Assembly: GCA_937889595.1 (NCBI GenBank)
Contig: CALAOR010000068.1
Span: 1 to 38,516 of the forward strand
Reading direction: 5' to 3'
Source of the DNA: an uncultured bacterium
GTDB taxonomy: Bacteria > Oederibacteriota > PGYV01 > Palsa-1178
Length of the DNA stretch: 38,516 nucleotides
In this document: piece after piece, positions 53 to 37,116 of the stretch
Layout: each line of letters begins with the position of its first letter
How positions within the stretch are numbered: the first letter of the stretch is position 1
Made by a program: the position numbers and the translations under genes
The notes under the pieces: model-generated
Databases searched by the model: none
Seen by the model: the letters and a program-made list of their open reading frames with translations, nothing else
What the model was told of the DNA's origin: nothing

Positions 53-2182
53 TTAATTAATAAATTCATATTTATACCGTTCGCCGTCTTTTGTCAGTTT
101 TACTTTTGCGTCAAAAACCTTGCCAGCTTTTGATTTCATGCCTTTGACCAGGACAGCCCGGCCGGACAACAGGCCTTTGGCCGTGGTAGCTGTTATTTTC
201 TTTCCCAATGACTTAAACCATGCGTCCTCTTTCCAAAGAGCAAACTTGCATTGGTTCACTTTGTCCTGGTAGCCGACACAAGAAAAGGCTTTTGGCGTTT
301 CTATGATCTCCCGGCCGCACTCCGGGCATTTACCCAGACTTTTGACTTCCCGGTGAACGGATCCGGATGTGGCTTTGAACTTATCAATCCCGAGGATTGT
401 AATTTCTTTTGCTACGGCCATAAAAGCTGCTTGCGGCAGGGTGCCCTGCTCGATGTCTTTGAGTTGTTTTTCAAGTCGGCCGGTAAAGTCAGGTTCGAGC
501 ATTTCCCGGATCGGATAGATCTCAATAAGACTGATTCCCAGGGCGGTCACGGAATAACTTTTTCCTTTGATAACAACGTAGCCGATTTTTTCGATTTTTT
601 TAAGGGCATCGGCGCGCGTAGCGGCCGTGCCAATCGAGTAGCCCTTTAGTATTTGTGTTTCGTCCTCTACTTCACGGCCGCAGTTCTGCATGACCGCAAG
701 TAGGGATTTGACCGTATATTTTTTTGGTGGCTTGGTATCTTTACCTGCAGTCTGCAGGTCCGTGGCCACAACGGCTAATTTTTCCCGCAAGGGAAAATTT
801 AGCCTGGTCAAATCCTCGTCGTCCTCTTTTTTATCGTCCTCATCGAGCAGGGTGGCCTGCTCCTGGTACAGGAGCTGCCAACCCGGACTTACCCGGACGC
901 GCGCGCGCGTCCGGAAGTCATGGACCTTAACGCGAGTAATTGCTTCGGTCTGGTCATACTCAGCCATGGGCGCAAACTGCGCTAGGAACCTTTTAACGAT
1001 TTCAATATAAATGATTTTTTCGTCCGGGGATATCCCGGACAAGCTCGGCACCAGGTATGTAGGCATAAGTGCCGGATGGCTGTCGACCTTGCTACTGTCA
1101 AATACACTTTTATGGTCATGCCATAAAAGTGATATTTGAGGGGGTATAAGACCTTGCCCGGATGTTTTTAAGGCCTCTAGGACGCGTTTTGAGGGCTCCT
1201 TTTGGCTCTCATCCAGGTATCTGGACGACGTGCGCGGGTATGTGATATATTTATCCTCGTATAAAGCCTGTGCACATTGTAATACTTTGTCAGCTGTCCA
1301 GCCCTCATACTGGCTCGTTATATGGCCCTGCAAATCGGTCAAGTTAAAAAGTTTACCTGGTCCTTTGATTTCTCGCGTGGTTGTGCATGACGTGATCGTG
1401 CCCGGCTGTCCTTTGACCGCGGTAATGACTGTATCAAGGTCTTTAGGATCGTTAAAACGGGTTTGTGAGGCCTGTACCTGGTACAGGCCTGTATAAGTAC
1501 CTTCCGCGGCCGCAAACGTGGCCGTGAGAGTATGATATTTTTTGGGAATGAAATTCTTGATCTCCATATCGCGGAGATAGATCAGGTTAACGGTCGGTAG
1601 TATGACCCGGCCTATGTTTAACATTTTTCCGTCAGAGGAAAAACGTTTTGTGGCCGCGACTGTGAAGTTAATCCCTAAGAGCCAGTCGGTCCAAGAACGA
1701 GCGTAGCCGGCTGCAGTAAGCGGCGCGTCAGCTGCGCCGGGGCGCGCGTCCGCGAAGCCTTTTTGGAGATCGTCCCGAGTGTAGGACGATATCCAAAGTC
1801 GTTTTGTCGGCACGTTAGTGCCGAGTGACTGGTATATCTCTGCAAAAATTAAACTGCCTTCCCGGTCACTATCACAGGCATTTATTATTTCAACCGCATC
1901 AGCGGCCAAGCCTTTAATAATTTTGAATTGTTTTTTATATCCGGGGCCGTCGTGGATTTTATATTTGAATGTGTCCGGGATAATCGGCAGATTATCCATG
2001 GACCAGGTAGCGTATTTAGTGTCATAGTCAGCCGCGTCAAAAAGACTAAACAAATGTCCGTAAGCAAAGGTGACGGCATAGCCGGCACCGGAAAAGTACC
2101 CGTCCTGGCGCGTACTCGCGCCCAGGACGTCAGCTATGCTTTTAGCTACAGACGGTTTTTCTGCTATGATAAGTTTGTTCAT
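53..2182 (-). CDS. topB: DNA topoisomerase III (TopB/TraE type)
   Basis: Type IA topoisomerase of 709 aa, which nicks and reseals one DNA strand. The N-terminal Toprim domain starts LIIAEKPS (Glu8) and has the acidic motif CDSDREG (Asp104, Asp106). The catalytic tyrosine is Tyr315 in ITYPRTSSRY. A C-terminal zinc ribbon with CPECG and two further cysteines follows near residues 635-660. Length and domain order fit TopB/TraE of conjugative plasmids, where the enzyme is thought to resolve DNA during replication or transfer. It is the last gene of the transfer operon and its ATG overlaps the stop of the GGDEF gene (ATGA). The family is clear; the plasmid-specific role is inferred from context. 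Confidence 0.95.
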   Translation of the reverse strand: MNKLIIAEKPSVAKSIADVLGASTRQDGYFSGAGYAVTFAYGHLFSLFDAADYDTKYATWSMDNLPIIPDTFKYKIHDGPGYKKQFKIIKGLAADAVEIINACDSDREGSLIFAEIYQSLGTNVPTKRLWISSYTRDDLQKGFADARPGAADAPLTAAGYARSWTDWLLGINFTVAATKRFSSDGKMLNIGRVILPTVNLIYLRDMEIKNFIPKKYHTLTATFAAAEGTYTGLYQVQASQTRFNDPKDLDTVITAVKGQPGTITSCTTTREIKGPGKLFNLTDLQGHITSQYEGWTADKVLQCAQALYEDKYITYPRTSSRYLDESQKEPSKRVLEALKTSGQGLIPPQISLLWHDHKSVFDSSKVDSHPALMPTYLVPSLSGISPDEKIIYIEIVKRFLAQFAPMAEYDQTEAITRVKVHDFRTRARVRVSPGWQLLYQEQATLLDEDDKKEDDEDLTRLNFPLREKLAVVATDLQTAGKDTKPPKKYTVKSLLAVMQNCGREVEDETQILKGYSIGTAATRADALKKIEKIGYVVIKGKSYSVTALGISLIEIYPIREMLEPDFTGRLEKQLKDIEQGTLPQAAFMAVAKEITILGIDKFKATSGSVHREVKSLGKCPECGREIIETPKAFSCVGYQDKVNQCKFALWKEDAWFKSLGKKITATTAKGLLSGRAVLVKGMKSKAGKVFDAKVKLTKDGERYKYEFIN

Positions 2183-3495
2183 TTGACTGTACCGGGTTCA
2201 ATTAGTTTAATTTCGCTATCGGACTTTATTAATCCTTGTCCTTCAGTAATTATTTGATTGCGTCCGTGTTCTTTCGCATAATAAAGTCGTGCATCGGCTA
2301 ATTTAGATATGTTTTCGTAGTTATTTCCTTCTTTTGGATATTCGGCAATTCCTCCGCTGCAGGTAACCTTATGCAAAGATATATTTTTTTCCGTATTAAC
2401 ATGTAGAGCAAGTTCTGAACCTATAAGTTTACGGAATTTTTCTGCAATAAGCAGGGCCTCGTCTTTGTTGCCAAAATAAACGGCTATAAATTCCTCACCC
2501 CCAATCCTAAAAATATCGCGGGAAAAAATATCTTTGCCTATCTCACCATATTTTCTTAAAACAATATCGCCGATATCGTGGCCGTAAGTATCATTTATGG
2601 CTTTAAATTTATCAATATCAAAAAAAATCAAAGAAATAATTTCTTTTTGTTCAAATTTTGGTTTGATCTTTTCTTCAAAACAAAGACGATTATTTATACC
2701 TGTCAAAAGGTCGGTATAAAGCTTGCGTTGCATCAAATTCATTCTACGCTCATGTTGTACTTCTTTAGTCAACGATTTGGTAATTTGACGGTCAAAAAGT
2801 TTCAAAAAAAGTTTTTGCAGTACGTTCATGTTTGGGTTTTCTTCGTTGAACTTAACCTTACTTTTTTCCTGAATAGCGTCATAAAGCTGTTTAAAATCCG
2901 GGTCTGTCCTTAGTTCGGAAACAGCATACAACGAATCGCATATTGTGGCCGCTTCCGGTGTTTCACCAAGATAATAATAACAATAGGCCATTTTTATCAG
3001 AACCCTGTTGAGATTATCTACCGCGCGCTGTATTCGTAAATAAATATCAAGCGCCCCACTGTAATCTTTATTAAAATATAATATATCGGCAAGCAGTTCA
3101 AGAGCATAGATATTAGTTTTATTTTTTTTGGCAATTTCATTTACTAAGCTTAATGCAACTTCGGTCGTTCCCGTTTTGCGGCCAAGGTAATAATAAATGT
3201 ATGCGAGATATAGTTTAATTTGTTCTATTATTTCTTCTTTATGTTCCTGGTCGTTTGGTTCTCGACTATTTAAATTTAAAAAAATAAGTTTAGCCTGATC
3301 AAAGTCCGAAACGCTATAATATATTTGTCCGGTTAAAAACAGTATGTCATAGTCAACCGGTACATCTTGACTGCCTTTTATTTGTTGTTCGGCTTCATGG
3401 GCTTTCTGTAAAATTTCCAATGCAGTTGAAAAATTACCTTTCTTATAATTGATCTGCGCATCCCGGTATAAATCCCTTGTGATTATTTCATCCAT
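2179..3495 (-). CDS. TPR-GGDEF protein, probable diguanylate cyclase
   Basis: 438 aa without a signal peptide or membrane segment. Residues 1 to about 240 are helical repeats of TPR type (for example ILFLTGQIYYSVSDFDQAKL). Residues 255-420 form a GGDEF domain with FFDIDKFKAIND and the signature GGEEF at 332-336, so the active site that makes cyclic di-GMP from two GTP looks intact. I see no RxxD inhibitory site five residues before the signature, so feedback inhibition may be lacking. It lies inside the type IV secretion operon, between the VirB8-like gene and topB. That placement suggests transfer or attachment is linked to c-di-GMP signalling, with the TPR part as a protein-binding sensor. 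The role is inferred. Confidence 0.88.
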   Translation of the reverse strand: MDEIITRDLYRDAQINYKKGNFSTALEILQKAHEAEQQIKGSQDVPVDYDILFLTGQIYYSVSDFDQAKLIFLNLNSREPNDQEHKEEIIEQIKLYLAYIYYYLGRKTGTTEVALSLVNEIAKKNKTNIYALELLADILYFNKDYSGALDIYLRIQRAVDNLNRVLIKMAYCYYYLGETPEAATICDSLYAVSELRTDPDFKQLYDAIQEKSKVKFNEENPNMNVLQKLFLKLFDRQITKSLTKEVQHERRMNLMQRKLYTDLLTGINNRLCFEEKIKPKFEQKEIISLIFFDIDKFKAINDTYGHDIGDIVLRKYGEIGKDIFSRDIFRIGGEEFIAVYFGNKDEALLIAEKFRKLIGSELALHVNTEKNISLHKVTCSGGIAEYPKEGNNYENISKLADARLYYAKEHGRNQIITEGQGLIKSDSEIKLIEPGTVK

Positions 3496-13702: not shown

Positions 13703-13762
13703 TGGTAGAGGTGATGGGATTCGAACCCACACGAGCTTACGCTCAGCAAATTGGCAATCTGC
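13703..13762 (-). pseudogene. 3' part of a tRNA, with long variable arm
   Basis: Read on the minus strand this has an anticodon stem GCAGA/TTTGC around TTGCCAA, a perfect variable-arm hairpin GAGC-GTAA-GCTC, a T arm with TTCGAAT, the 3' acceptor strand CACCTCT, then A and CCA. No 5' acceptor strand or D arm lies upstream, so it is a fragment. The apparent GCC (Gly) anticodon with a class II variable arm is an odd pairing. A 12-bp direct repeat (CACACGAGCTTA at 13728-13739 and 13771-13782) brackets the anticodon arm. It could be a remnant of integration into a tRNA gene, now in the leader of the transfer operon. Confidence 0.6.
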
Positions 13763-13792
13763 AAAAGACACACACGAGCTTAAGCATAATAA

Positions 13793-14090: not shown

Positions 14091-14321
14091 GCCCTTTCAC
14101 ATGCGCGCGAGTTACAACAGATACATACATTGCCAACGTCATGACTTACGTAGTCACAATCTACACCTGCGCGCGAGTTGCAACTCTCGTTATAATTTAA
14201 ACGTTATATATTTAGGTCTTTGTCACAATCCGTACCGACGCGCGAGTTGCAACTACTTTCAACGGTGTGGAATGTACCATAAGCTATCTGTCACAATCCG
14301 TACCGACGCGCGAGTTGCAAC
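14087..14321 (-). CRISPR. short CRISPR-like array: four repeats, three spacers
   Basis: The 32-nt repeat occupies 14290-14321 and 14222-14253 (identical), 14153-14184 (degenerate centre) and 14087-14118 (mostly its last 14 bases). On the minus strand it begins GTTGCAACTCGCGCG and ends GGATTGTGAC. The spacers are 36 nt (14254-14289), 37 nt (14185-14221) and 34 nt (14119-14152). Decay of the leftmost repeats implies the leader is on the right, beside the nuclease gene, giving minus-strand transcription. The 36-nt spacer matches 34801-34836 in this element at 31 of 36 bases. No cas1 or cas2 is visible. Iterons are the main alternative, but the regular unique spacers and the match argue against that. 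Confidence 0.77.
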
Positions 14322-14322
14322 T

Positions 14323-14350
14323 TCGGCCAAAAAATCACCTCTATTATAAG
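14323..14350 (-). terminator. terminator-like hairpin with embedded TATAAT between nuclease and array
   Basis: On the minus strand ACCTCT-TATAAT-AGAGGT is followed by GATTTTTT, a good intrinsic terminator for the nuclease gene. The loop is an exact TATAAT (14343-14348), which could instead be the -10 box of the array promoter, with a start about 15 bases before the first repeat. I see no good -35 box. Confidence 0.6.
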
Positions 14351-14376
14351 AGGTTATCTTTTGACCCGGCGCGAAC

Positions 14377-15705
14377 CTACCCAGTTTGGACTTTTTGTTT
14401 GACGTTTCGTTGACTGCCCTTAAAAGCGCTAATCTCCACGTCCGTTAATTTGGCGGTGTGCCCGCCTATTATCTCTATGTGCTGTCTAAGACCGATGTTT
14501 TTGATATTAATTGCCGCGTTCTCATCACGGTCTAAGACCGCTCCGCAGCTGCTACACGTCCATGACCTATCACGTAATGTCAGTTCCGCGTTCTTGTGGC
14601 CACAATGACAACAAATTTTGCTTGTCGGCGCGAACCTGTTTATCTGGATCAAGTTGACCCCGTACCAATTGCACTTATATTTAAGCTTGTTTATAAAACT
14701 TGTCCAAGACACGTCCGATATTGATTTTGCGAGCTTATGGTTCGCGAGCATACCCTTTACGTTAAGGTTCTCAACCACAATCGTCCGCACTTGGTTATCA
14801 TGCGTAAGTTTGTAACTGAGGTTATGTGCAAAGTTTTCGCGAACCCGTACAATCTTTTCATGGAGCCGGGCAATCTTCCTTTTCTGTGCTAAAAATCTGT
14901 TACTTTTGACTGACCCTTTCAACATACCCTTACGTCTTGCTAAGGTTTGTTGTAACCGATGAAATTTCTTTTCATACTTTTTAAGTGTTTTAGGATTTTT
15001 AATTTTTTCCCCGGTGCTTAACGCGATCATATCAATAAGGCCGAGGTCAAGTCCGATTGTCTTGGCCGGAGTTATTTTTGATACTGACAATGGCTTGTCC
15101 AGCGTGTCAACCATTATGCTGACATAATACTCGCCGCTCTTTGTCCTGGACACGGTGAGGTTGCGGATCTGACCCGTAAAATGTCGGGATAATATTACTT
15201 TGATAGGCGTGTCAATACGCGGTAGTGTGATTGTGTGTGTCTGCCAGTTCACGTATTGGCGAGTATGTGTGCTCTCATATGTCCGATAACTTTGCTTGTT
15301 GCCGTGCTTTTTTTTGCGCTGCGGAAATCCCGCGTCCTTGCCTGTAACACCTTTTTTCAATCTTGTAAAAAAATTTTTGTAAGCTGTTTGCAGATCGCCC
15401 AGGGATTGTACAAGCGCCATGGCCTCGATTTCATTAAGCCAGGGCACTTCCGGGTTCTTTTTAAATTGTGTTAGTTCATTTGATAATTTGTAAGCATTAA
15501 ATTTAGGCCGGAGTTTTTTGTACTGTACTTCCGTCATTTCCCCGGATTCAAGTTTTGGTTTAAATTCCTTTTCAAAGTCCTCATACGCCTTATTGGATTT
15601 AGCAAGCGCCCAGTTATAGATATAACGACATGAACCAATAGTTTTATTGATCTGTGTTGCTTGATCTTCTGTTGGGTACAGCCTGTATTTAAAAGCTTTA
15701 AGCAT
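14377..15705 (-). CDS. TnpB/Cas12-like RuvC nuclease beside the array
   Basis: 442 aa from the ATG at 15705; GGGAG lies eight bases upstream, and the longer reading from 15765 has no such site. It starts MLKAFKYRLYPTEDQ, as in IS200/IS605 TnpB. The RuvC centre is intact: Asp in TIGLDLGLIDMIAL, Glu in IVVENLNVKGML, Asp in LDRDENAAINI. A zinc finger, CCHCGHKN then CSSCG, lies between the last two. TnpB proteins are RNA-guided DNA nucleases and the ancestors of Cas12. No TnpA gene or IS605-type end is evident here. A CRISPR-like array begins 56 bp past the stop, so this may be a type V-U-like effector rather than a transposon gene. By sequence alone it reads as a normal TnpB. Confidence 0.85.
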   Translation of the reverse strand: MLKAFKYRLYPTEDQATQINKTIGSCRYIYNWALAKSNKAYEDFEKEFKPKLESGEMTEVQYKKLRPKFNAYKLSNELTQFKKNPEVPWLNEIEAMALVQSLGDLQTAYKNFFTRLKKGVTGKDAGFPQRKKKHGNKQSYRTYESTHTRQYVNWQTHTITLPRIDTPIKVILSRHFTGQIRNLTVSRTKSGEYYVSIMVDTLDKPLSVSKITPAKTIGLDLGLIDMIALSTGEKIKNPKTLKKYEKKFHRLQQTLARRKGMLKGSVKSNRFLAQKRKIARLHEKIVRVRENFAHNLSYKLTHDNQVRTIVVENLNVKGMLANHKLAKSISDVSWTSFINKLKYKCNWYGVNLIQINRFAPTSKICCHCGHKNAELTLRDRSWTCSSCGAVLDRDENAAINIKNIGLRQHIEIIGGHTAKLTDVEISAFKGSQRNVKQKVQTG

Positions 15706-16192
15706 TTGTTGCTCCCTTACTATCTTGTCAAACACTTTACAATATAAAACCTCAAAAGTCAACAACTATTTGTTAGCCTCATGGGGATTATTTAAGACAT
15801 TAAAGCGTATTACTTTTCTTACTTTTCCGTTTACGGTCAGGACCTTATGGGATTGGCCCGCACACAAGACGGAAATTACCTACTTTATAATTGTACAACA
15901 AAAACATTGTTTTAACCATACAATTTATCTAAACATTATTTAGCCTGTTAAGGCTGTTTAGTTTGTTTCATAAAAACGCCATGGCTTGGTTCAGGGGAAC
16001 CCCCTGCTTTTTAGGGGGGAGGACCCCTATATACTTTCTCGGTTCGAGTTTTTTCACATTTAGGTTGCGTTTGGTCTTGCCGGGAGCTAATTTTATCTTT
16101 AAATAAAATTGAAGCCCCCGGACAAGTGGTTTACTGGCGAGTGACACTCTCGATCAGTGCCAATTCCAAAAACATAAACTCAAATCCTTATA
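15706..16192. other. non-coding region with hairpins
   Basis: No convincing gene. It holds a small palindrome CAGGGGAACCCCCTG near 15993, and a longer imperfect hairpin near 16080-16125 (CCGGGAGCTAATTTTAT paired with ATAAAATTGAAGCCCCCGG). At 16136-16144, GCGAGTGAC is complementary to nine bases of the candidate small RNA at 16445. Any promoter for the nuclease gene should be here, but I see none that is close to consensus. Confidence 0.4.
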
Positions 16193-34045: not shown

Positions 34046-34540
34046 CTACTCTACCCAATAAATAATTCGTATTTCTTTCGGTAAACCTTTGGTCTTTAAT
34101 TCGTTGAGAAGACTATATAAATGTGAAGCAAAAATTTTATACGGTACAAATTGACCTTTTGGATCATCAAAATCAGCATTGGCCATAAGCTTATTATTTT
34201 CATCGCCAAATATTTGTACTTTTTGAGCTGACAATTGTTCCCAATCAAAATCCAACAACTCTGTTAATGTGTGCCAACCGTAAATACAATGATCCTCATC
34301 ACGTTCTTTATTAAAATATTGTTTTGCTTCGCTGCTTATATCTTTTGGTAATTTAAATTCATGTAAAGGTTCTATGAATTTGATTGATTTATCAAGTGAA
34401 TAGGCCCCTAAAAGACCACACGTATATGAATCATCTCTTGAATAGACTACACCTTTTTCATCATAACCAAAACCAAAATCAGACGGAATCCATTCATTGT
34501 TTTTTAGTACTTCACAGTATATTGTTATTGCTTTAGCCAT
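34046..34540 (-). CDS. hypothetical protein, 164 aa
   Basis: Soluble and rich in aromatic and acidic residues (SDFGFGYDEKGVVYSRDDSY, FDWEQLSAQKVQIFGDENNK). The pattern suggests a phage- or plasmid-type structural or accessory protein. It overlaps the previous gene by eight bases. I recognise no family. Confidence 0.6.
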   Translation of the reverse strand: MAKAITIYCEVLKNNEWIPSDFGFGYDEKGVVYSRDDSYTCGLLGAYSLDKSIKFIEPLHEFKLPKDISSEAKQYFNKERDEDHCIYGWHTLTELLDFDWEQLSAQKVQIFGDENNKLMANADFDDPKGQFVPYKIFASHLYSLLNELKTKGLPKEIRIIYWVE

Positions 34541-34856
34541 TATGTTTTTCTCCTTCTTCGGGCGGTGTGTTTTTAAGTCTTGCTATCGGTGCAAAAACAT
34601 ACCCGAGGTTTATTGTCTTGTCTGTCGGTGTTATTATACCGGCTGTAAGTAACGCCAGGTACATGCCGCTATTTTCTGCGTAGTCCTTAATGATAACCTC
34701 GTTAACAGCAAGCGTTACTTCCGGCACGTTAATTGTTGCTCTAGCATAAGGCCCCTCCGCGTCCCAAAGCTGCAGCCCTGTCCTGCCATTTTCGTATTTT
34801 AGATAACTTATAGTACATTCTACACCCTTGAAAATAACTTTGTTGTTTGTTGTCAT
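34533..34856 (-). CDS. DUF4313-like mobile-element protein containing the matched protospacer
   Basis: 107 aa (MTTNNKVIFKGVECTISYLK, then GRTGLQLWDAEGPYARATIN and NEVIIKDYAENSGMYLALLT, ending near LGYVFAPIARLKNT). This resembles small proteins of the DUF4313 type spread over phages and conjugative elements; the function is unknown. Codons 7-19 contain the sequence matched by a spacer of the array at 14254-14289. The spacer would encode nearly the same peptide (IFNGVECTISYL-like), so it came from a homologue of this gene. Confidence 0.65.
   Translation of the reverse strand: MTTNNKVIFKGVECTISYLKYENGRTGLQLWDAEGPYARATINVPEVTLAVNEVIIKDYAENSGMYLALLTAGIITPTDKTINLGYVFAPIARLKNTPPEEGEKHNG
34801..34836. 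other. protospacer-like match to the 36-nt CRISPR spacer
   Basis: 31 of 36 bases equal the spacer at 14254-14289 in one gapless alignment. Four of the five differences are at third codon positions, and three are silent in the gene. On the plus strand the match (AGATAACTTATAGTACATTC) is preceded by TATTTT, a T-rich 5' flank. Confidence 0.85.
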
Positions 34857-36315: not shown

Positions 36316-37116
36316 TCAGTTTAAAAATGTATTTAATTCCTGTGTTGTTGGTTTTGTATTTTCAATCCCCTTTTGTTCATTTTCCGGCAGAGTCGATAAA
36401 AAATCAAGCCCTGTTTCCTGTTGAATCTCATCAATGGTAACTTCGTGCGCGGGGATGTCGTTGGTCTCGTCCTGGTTCTTGTACTGGAAGGCCAGGGCGG
36501 TCAGATTCCCATTGTCCTGGAATATCACTATCTTATAGAACCCCCAGGGGACCCAGACGTGATCCGGGCCGAGTTCTTCTTCGGGCTTAAAAGACCCTTT
36601 ACGGCTATCCTTCTCAAATATTGGCCCTACAATGACCCAAATTTCGCCGTATTTGACCGCTAAGGCCCTTACTTTGACTTCAAGCTGTTCCCATGGGTGC
36701 CGGTTTAACTGAGGCCACTGTGGGCACATATTGGATAGGTAGAAGCATTCTTTCATGGTGGTCGGATTCCGGCTCTCGTCCGCGGCCGGGCACATGTGCC
36801 CTTTGTCGTACCCGCTCTTGCTGTAATCTTTGTTTGTGGCTCTCTCTCCGGGCGCGAGGTCCGGGTCGGGCAGGAACTTGTAATTTTTACGTTTTTCAGT
36901 GCCGGCCGCGAGGTAGTCCTTTGTCAAATGATATGAAACCCATAGTGGAACCTTCTTTGCGGTGTCTTCGCATACAACGTAGCCCTCGCGGTAAAGCGTT
37001 TGGCAGGTGCTGCAGGTGCCGGGGATTCCGTATTTCAAGTGTTCGTTGATCGGCGCGGTACTGCATAAAAATAGAGTAACCAGCAAGGCAACGGTTATTA
37101 ACGATATTTTTTTCAT
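36316..37116 (-). CDS. secreted DNA/RNA non-specific endonuclease (NUC1 family)
   Basis: 266 aa with a signal peptide (KKISLITVALLVTLFLCSTA). The beta-beta-alpha-metal catalytic motif is GYDKGHMCPAAD (DKGH at 104-107, general base His107). Asn138 and Glu146 in NRHPWEQLEV have the spacing of the magnesium-binding residues in Serratia nuclease. The family usually has DRGH; Lys for Arg occurs. The enzyme would degrade DNA and RNA in the periplasm or outside the cell. Related nucleases occur on conjugative plasmids, where they may limit uptake of other DNA. Confidence 0.9.
   Translation of the reverse strand: MKKISLITVALLVTLFLCSTAPINEHLKYGIPGTCSTCQTLYREGYVVCEDTAKKVPLWVSYHLTKDYLAAGTEKRKNYKFLPDPDLAPGERATNKDYSKSGYDKGHMCPAADESRNPTTMKECFYLSNMCPQWPQLNRHPWEQLEVKVRALAVKYGEIWVIVGPIFEKDSRKGSFKPEEELGPDHVWVPWGFYKIVIFQDNGNLTALAFQYKNQDETNDIPAHEVTIDEIQQETGLDFLSTLPENEQKGIENTKPTTQELNTFLN

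What the first reader, a model, noticed from the sequence alone, without database searches (positions are those of the whole stretch)
14254..14289. Spacer matches a gene of the same element at 31 of 36 bases
The 36-nt spacer aligns without gaps to 34801-34836 inside the DUF4313-like gene. Of the five differences four fall at third codon positions and three are silent, so the spacer was copied from a protein-coding homologue, not from this element itself. A rough binomial estimate puts a chance match of this quality anywhere in the window near one in a billion. It shows that the array really acquires sequence from mobile elements of this family, which implies competition between related plasmids.
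Basis: seen in the sequence. Interest (0 to 1): 0.93.

Follow-up and report, generated by a model that had tools for sequence, protein, structure and literature searches.

The report
Plasmid CRISPR spacer matching sister plasmid
A conjugative plasmid carries a tiny CRISPR-like guide array beside a TnpB-type DNA-cutting protein, and its newest guide closely but imperfectly matches one of the plasmid's own genes, as expected if it was copied from a closely related rival element that no public collection searched here contains.

Summary
Spacer 14254-14289 aligns without gaps to 34801-34836 at 31/36. The homology stops at both spacer edges, and the next best window match is 20/36. The expected number of such chance matches is about 3e-9 for this spacer. 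The three short repeat-spacer units lie just downstream of a TnpB-like nuclease gene with an intact RuvC triad, on a contig with conjugation, partition and replication genes. The matching spacer is the effector-proximal one, at the putative leader end. Its target has 5'-ATTTT on the side where type V nucleases read a PAM. The last part of the effector gene keeps the conserved guide-RNA core helix of TnpB relatives, and the repeat sits where their terminal guide-RNA hairpin sits. This looks like a TnpB-derived mini-CRISPR (type V-U). Acquisition from a family member is likely, but not proven. No source was found in plasmids, phages, IMG/VR, GTDB species genomes or the host's phylum. Silent-biased differences do not by themselves exclude descent from this plasmid's own gene. 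The gene family also occurs on phages, so 'competition between plasmids' is an inference. No Cas1 was found in the host genome. Closest known kinds: plasmid type IV/V-M/V-F systems and TnpB-to-Cas12 exaptations.

The parts
14254..14289 (-). Spacer S1 (36 nt), effector-proximal, putatively the newest; matches 34801-34836 at 31/36
   Evidence: next best match in window 20/36
34801..34836 (+). Protospacer-like site in crRNA sense, preceded by 5'-GTATTTT; it covers codons 7 to 19 of the minus-strand gene
   Evidence: TTTT at 3.0% of + strand positions
34533..34856 (-). Target gene, 107 aa, family of small unknown proteins on plasmids and phages (30-54% identity to relatives)
   Evidence: no Pfam/NCBIfam family
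14290..14321 (-). Repeat R1, GTTGCAACTCGCGCGTCGGTACGGATTGTGAC (32 nt), next to the effector
   Evidence: hairpin with 7-bp terminal stem (z -0.5, not itself significant)
14222..14253 (-). Repeat R2, identical to R1
14185..14221 (-). Spacer S2 (37 nt), no match found
14153..14184 (-). Repeat R3, variant in the middle, stem kept
14119..14152 (-). Spacer S3 (34 nt), no match found
14098..14118 (-). Truncated, degenerate terminal repeat at the leader-distal end
   Evidence: D2
14377..15705 (-). TnpB-like RNA-guided nuclease (442 aa from M21; open frame 14377-15765); RuvC motifs GLDLG, VENLN, DRDENAA and zinc ribbon intact
   Evidence: the start at M21 is inferred from homologues
14401..14442 (-). 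Guide-RNA core helix GACGU-GGA ... GAA-ACGUC inside the 3' end of the effector gene, as in omegaRNAs of TnpB relatives
14337..14354 (-). Hairpin with U run between effector and array (part of the scaffold, or a terminator)

Best explanation
A TnpB-derived, single-effector mini-CRISPR (type V-U kind) rides on a conjugative plasmid. The effector gene's 3' end encodes the guide-RNA scaffold. The repeats stand in for the terminal hairpin of that scaffold, and the spacers act as guides. The newest spacer was copied from the same gene of a sister mobile element, most likely another plasmid of this family. The effector would cut that element at a 5'-TTTT-flanked site, while this plasmid's own copy is spared by mismatches at positions 6 and 12 of the guide and three further on. 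Shown: array anatomy, spacer match, intact catalytic motifs, conserved scaffold helix, plasmid context. Inferred: expression, cleavage, direction of acquisition, identity of the source, and acquisition by an adaptation machine supplied in trans, because no Cas1 was found in this genome.
For: 31/36 match ending at spacer edges, expected about 3e-9. Polarity: two identical repeats on the effector side, a variant, then a truncated terminal repeat. T-rich 5' flank of the target in the orientation given by that polarity (base rate 3%). TnpB-family effector with intact motifs. Core helix of relatives' guide RNAs kept by compensatory change, 5 of 5 pairs covarying (the arms were picked by eye), and found by a descriptor at the right place, against 1.2% of local shuffles. 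Plasmid genes: replication initiator, ParA/ParB, VirD4, VirB4, topoisomerase. A fragment of a second, related element lies in the same MAG with the same TraD-ParB-ParA order. Both replaced residues in the spacer occur in the family.
Against: Source not found in any collection searched. Only one of three spacers has a match. No Cas1 in the 99% complete MAG. The array is short and seen in one genome only. No expression or cleavage data.
Confidence: 0.66

Rival explanations
1. The spacer was copied from this plasmid's own lineage, and the gene afterwards changed, by drift or by selection to escape, mostly at silent sites.
For: Silent-biased differences in the gene are expected in this case too. 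Mismatches at positions 6 and 12 are where escape would be expected. Self-directed spacers are known (PMC6990116, listed).
Against: Five changes in 36 nt within the life of a still-present newest spacer is a lot. The spacer's own residues look like a different normal family member.
Confidence: 0.15
2. The spacer came from a phage that carries a member of the same small gene family, so the array is antiviral rather than anti-plasmid.
For: The family is common on viral contigs (109 relatives) and is found on two large uncultured-phage records and Gordonia phages. About a quarter of matched plasmid spacers target viruses (PMC9071438).
Against: Viral homologues reach at most 21/36 at the spacer site, and the codon-degenerate pattern has no hit in IMG/VR. 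The nearest relative of the spacer known is on a plasmid, this one.
Confidence: 0.15
3. The partly matching guide, antisense to the mRNA of the plasmid's own gene, serves to tune that gene or the plasmid rather than to attack others.
For: The crRNA sense is complementary to codons 7-19 of the mRNA. Regulation by partly matching CRISPR RNAs is described for other systems (PMC8730458).
Against: No partial-match design feature is visible; the match spans the full spacer length as in an acquired spacer; the effector is a predicted DNA nuclease.
Confidence: 0.035
4. Chance similarity or a local duplication.
For: None found.
Against: Expected count about 3e-9; no similarity beyond the spacer edges.
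Confidence: 0.005

Closest known systems
[quoted passage not shown] PMC12669027 citing Altae-Tran 2023)
   Same: TnpB-sized single effector with intact RuvC, short array, no adaptation genes beside it
   Different: No relative with an array was found here; the array repeat sits in the place of the omegaRNA terminal hairpin and the omegaRNA core helix is still in the effector's 3' end
IS200/IS605 TnpB with omegaRNA
   Same: Closest protein family (NCBIfam guided_TnpB 310 bits, cut-off 100), same core helix, scaffold in the gene's 3' end
   Different: No tnpA found among the genes scanned; several guides separated by repeats instead of one guide at the transposon end
Type IV-A and V-M (Cas12m) plasmid CRISPR systems
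   Same: Carried by plasmids, often no adaptation module, seen as tools of inter-plasmid competition (PMC11656645, PMC9071438)
   Different: Effector here is a TnpB-like predicted nuclease, not a type IV complex and not a RuvC-dead Cas12m
Type V-F (Cas12f), enriched on plasmids (PMC11656645)
   Same: Miniature TnpB-like nuclease; repeat starting GTTGCA and T-rich PAM (last two recalled, not tested)
   Different: Scores TnpB models above Cas12f models; no tracrRNA anti-repeat detected

Membership tests
CRISPR array | Regular repeats of 25-40 nt separated by unique spacers of similar length | tested here: met
   32-nt repeats, spacers 36, 37 and 34 nt
CRISPR array | At least one spacer derived from a mobile element | tested here: met
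   S1 31/36 to a plasmid gene; exact source not found
CRISPR array | Adaptation genes (cas1/cas2) available in the genome (usual, not required: plasmid and V-U systems often lack them) | tested here: not met
   No Cas1 in the MAG; Cas1 in 14 of 45 genomes of the phylum
Type V (Cas12/TnpB) effector | RuvC triad D/E/D with zinc ribbon in a TnpB-like protein | tested here: met
   Motifs at residues 238, 331, 412 and 385-404; Pfam OrfB_IS605 and Cas12f1-like_TNB; TnpB structures by sequence
Type V (Cas12/TnpB) effector | T-rich PAM 5' of the protospacer | tested here: inconclusive
   GTATTTT at the single known site; base rate of TTTT 3%
Subtype V-U4 | Effector falls with V-U4 rather than with transposon TnpB | tested here: inconclusive
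   Cas12u4 272 bits against 218-240 for four ordinary TnpBs; IS200_TnpB 371 bits against 421-444 for two of them. No tree with V-U4 members was built
IS200/IS605 TnpB guide RNA | Conserved core helix upstream of the guide | tested here: met
   GACGU/ACGUC at 14442-14401, covarying with relatives; arms picked by eye
IS200/IS605 transposon | tnpA or transposon ends next to tnpB | tested here: inconclusive
   None of the window genes scanned scored as TnpA, but the small frames right next to the effector were not scanned and ends were not mapped
Plasmid-plasmid competition by CRISPR | Interference with the matched element | not testable with these tools
   Needs experiment

The most novel reading that the evidence does not exclude
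A transitional form between transposon TnpB and Cas12: the full omegaRNA is still in place, the CRISPR repeat is the multiplied 3' hairpin of that omegaRNA, the first spacer works directly as the omegaRNA guide, and a plasmid uses it against its own sister plasmids with an adaptation machine borrowed from other hosts.
Probability: 0.3. Interest if true: 0.75.

Novelty: new variant of a known kind. Interest (0 to 1): 0.55.

Why it matters
If right, it is a natural case of a transposon nuclease turned into a plasmid weapon against near relatives, with the guide RNA still in its transposon layout. That would make the step from TnpB/omegaRNA to Cas12/crRNA testable in one locus. It also shows which element family such arrays sample. 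The general ideas (plasmid CRISPRs aim at plasmids; TnpB gave rise to type V many times) are already established.

Tried and rejected
Chance match and duplication: rejected. Anti-repeat (tracrRNA) upstream of the array: the best duplex was no better than shuffles (178 of 300 shuffles as good). The repeat elsewhere: none in 44 genomes of the phylum or in IMG/VR. Exact source of S1 by blastn, degenerate codons, and up to 3 mismatches in the phylum: none. Sources of S2 and S3: none. Close effector relatives with arrays: the GTDB scan gave two TnpB relatives at 26-36% identity; direct-repeat searches beside L007-L010 and in L012 showed no array. Arrays beside the two GTDB loci were not searched for. 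Alignment of whole omegaRNAs for a covariance model: loops too variable, so only the core helix arms were compared; these arms were picked by eye. Rep and VirD4 relatives in IMG/VR: none. Circular closure of the contig: no terminal overlap. DUF4313 label: not recovered by Pfam or NCBIfam.

Full report
Observation. The spacer at 14254-14289 lies between two identical 32-nt repeats (14222-14253 and 14290-14321). Its reverse complement aligns without gaps to 34801-34836 with 31 of 36 identities, and the similarity stops at both spacer edges. The second-best site for this spacer in the window has 20 of 36, and the best match of 2000 permuted spacers was 26. With the window's base composition the expected number of such matches over both strands is about 3e-9. 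Four or more of five at third positions has P = 0.034, so this part is suggestive only.

Surroundings. The window is a whole 38,516-base contig of a 3.42-Mb, 93-contig genome. It carries a replication initiator, ParA, ParB, a VirD4/TraG coupling protein, a VirB4/TraG ATPase and a topoisomerase, so it is a conjugative plasmid or similar element. A 4.3-kb contig of the same MAG holds a related VirD4 fragment, ParB and ParA in the same order at 43, 27 and 36% identity, so a second member of the family is probably in the same host or bin.

Effector. The minus-strand gene 14377-15765 (probable start 15705) encodes a TnpB-family protein with RuvC motifs GLDLG, VENLN and DRDENAA and a zinc ribbon. 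NCBIfam guided_TnpB is over cut-off (310 bits, cut-off 100) and PADLOC's best model is Cas12u4 (272 bits). As a control, four ordinary TnpBs give 218-240 bits for Cas12u4, and two of them give 421-444 for IS200_TnpB against 371 here. The protein is therefore somewhat shifted from transposon TnpB towards V-U4, but subtype membership is not settled. The nearest TnpB in the same genome is 44% identical and no array was found beside it.

Array polarity and PAM. Read in the effector's direction, the two repeats nearest the effector are identical, the third has changes in its middle, and the last is truncated. This places the leader at the effector side and makes the matching spacer the newest. In that orientation the protospacer is preceded by GTATTTT, as expected for a type V PAM. 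TTTT precedes 3% of positions on that strand, so this is one modest piece of evidence.

Guide RNA. Relatives' guide RNAs have a short core helix, CCUGU/ACAGG, CCUCU/AGAGG, CCUAC/GUAGG or GACGU/ACGUC, mostly flanked by GGA and GAA, followed in most of them by a terminal hairpin and a tail such as GGAUGUCAC or GUAGUUCAC before the guide. The window has GACGUGGA...GAAACGUC at 14442-14401 inside the effector gene's 3' end, with arms identical to L009. A descriptor search finds it there; only 1.2% of local shuffles contain such a helix, and the whole window has just two other hits. All five pairs covary across the set, with the caution that the arms were chosen by eye. The repeat ends GGAUUGUGAC before the first two spacers. 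The first spacer is thus joined to a layout that resembles a complete omegaRNA. No anti-repeat was detected. The last inference, that the repeat descends from the omegaRNA's terminal hairpin, is mine and is not proven.

Source of the spacer. The target gene belongs to a family of small unknown proteins on plasmids and phages. At the spacer site 40 viral homologues match at 21/36 at best, median 14. The spacer's T8 and N10 both occur in the family, so it plausibly encodes a normal relative. No source was found in plasmid and phage collections, with a codon-degenerate pattern in IMG/VR and GTDB, or in the phylum with up to three mismatches. The source must be closer to this plasmid than any element in those collections. 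Silent differences do not show on which lineage the changes happened, so a self-derived spacer with later change in the gene remains possible.

Acquisition. No Cas1 was found in this MAG, but 14 of 45 genomes of the phylum have it, two of the same family among them. Acquisition in trans is known for plasmid type IV systems (Benz 2024, cited in PMC12669027 and described in PMC11656645) and is the likeliest route here, in this or an earlier host.

Comparison. Plasmid-borne CRISPR spacers mostly match other plasmids (66% of matched spacers; PMC9071438), and type IV and V-M systems are read as inter-plasmid weapons (PMC11656645). About 50 independent associations of TnpB with arrays and/or adaptation modules have been inferred (PMC12669027). 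The finding is therefore a new case, not found in the papers and collections searched, within known kinds. Its most distinctive trait is the near-unchanged omegaRNA layout.

Noticed in passing
C51 of the same genome (L129, 1-4345): Fragment of a second conjugative element with TraD-ParB-ParA in the same order as the window (27-43% identity) plus an AAA_14/DUF4143 gene
   Followed up: partly
L007 (C12:5708-6799 of the same genome): TnpB at 44% identity without an array; its omegaRNA-like 3' end is a GCCCGG hairpin + GGATGTCAC, and the flanking sequence suggests a T-rich (ATTTT) target motif
   Followed up: partly
L009 (IMG/VR 3300034104_005002): TnpB-like gene whose core helix arms are identical to the window's (GACGTGGA/GAAACGTC)
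   Followed up: partly
window 13725-13785: tRNA-like 3' fragment (GGTGATGGGATTCGAACCCACACG) not called by ARAGORN; possible attachment-site remnant
   Followed up: no
window 36316-37116: DNA/RNA non-specific endonuclease (Endonuclease_NS) on the plasmid
   Followed up: no
window 2179-3495: Tetratricopeptide-GGDEF diguanylate cyclase among the transfer genes
   Followed up: no
L012 (pMETHO01 of Methanomethylovorans): A relative of the target gene lies close to two TnpB genes on an archaeal plasmid; no array found there
   Followed up: partly
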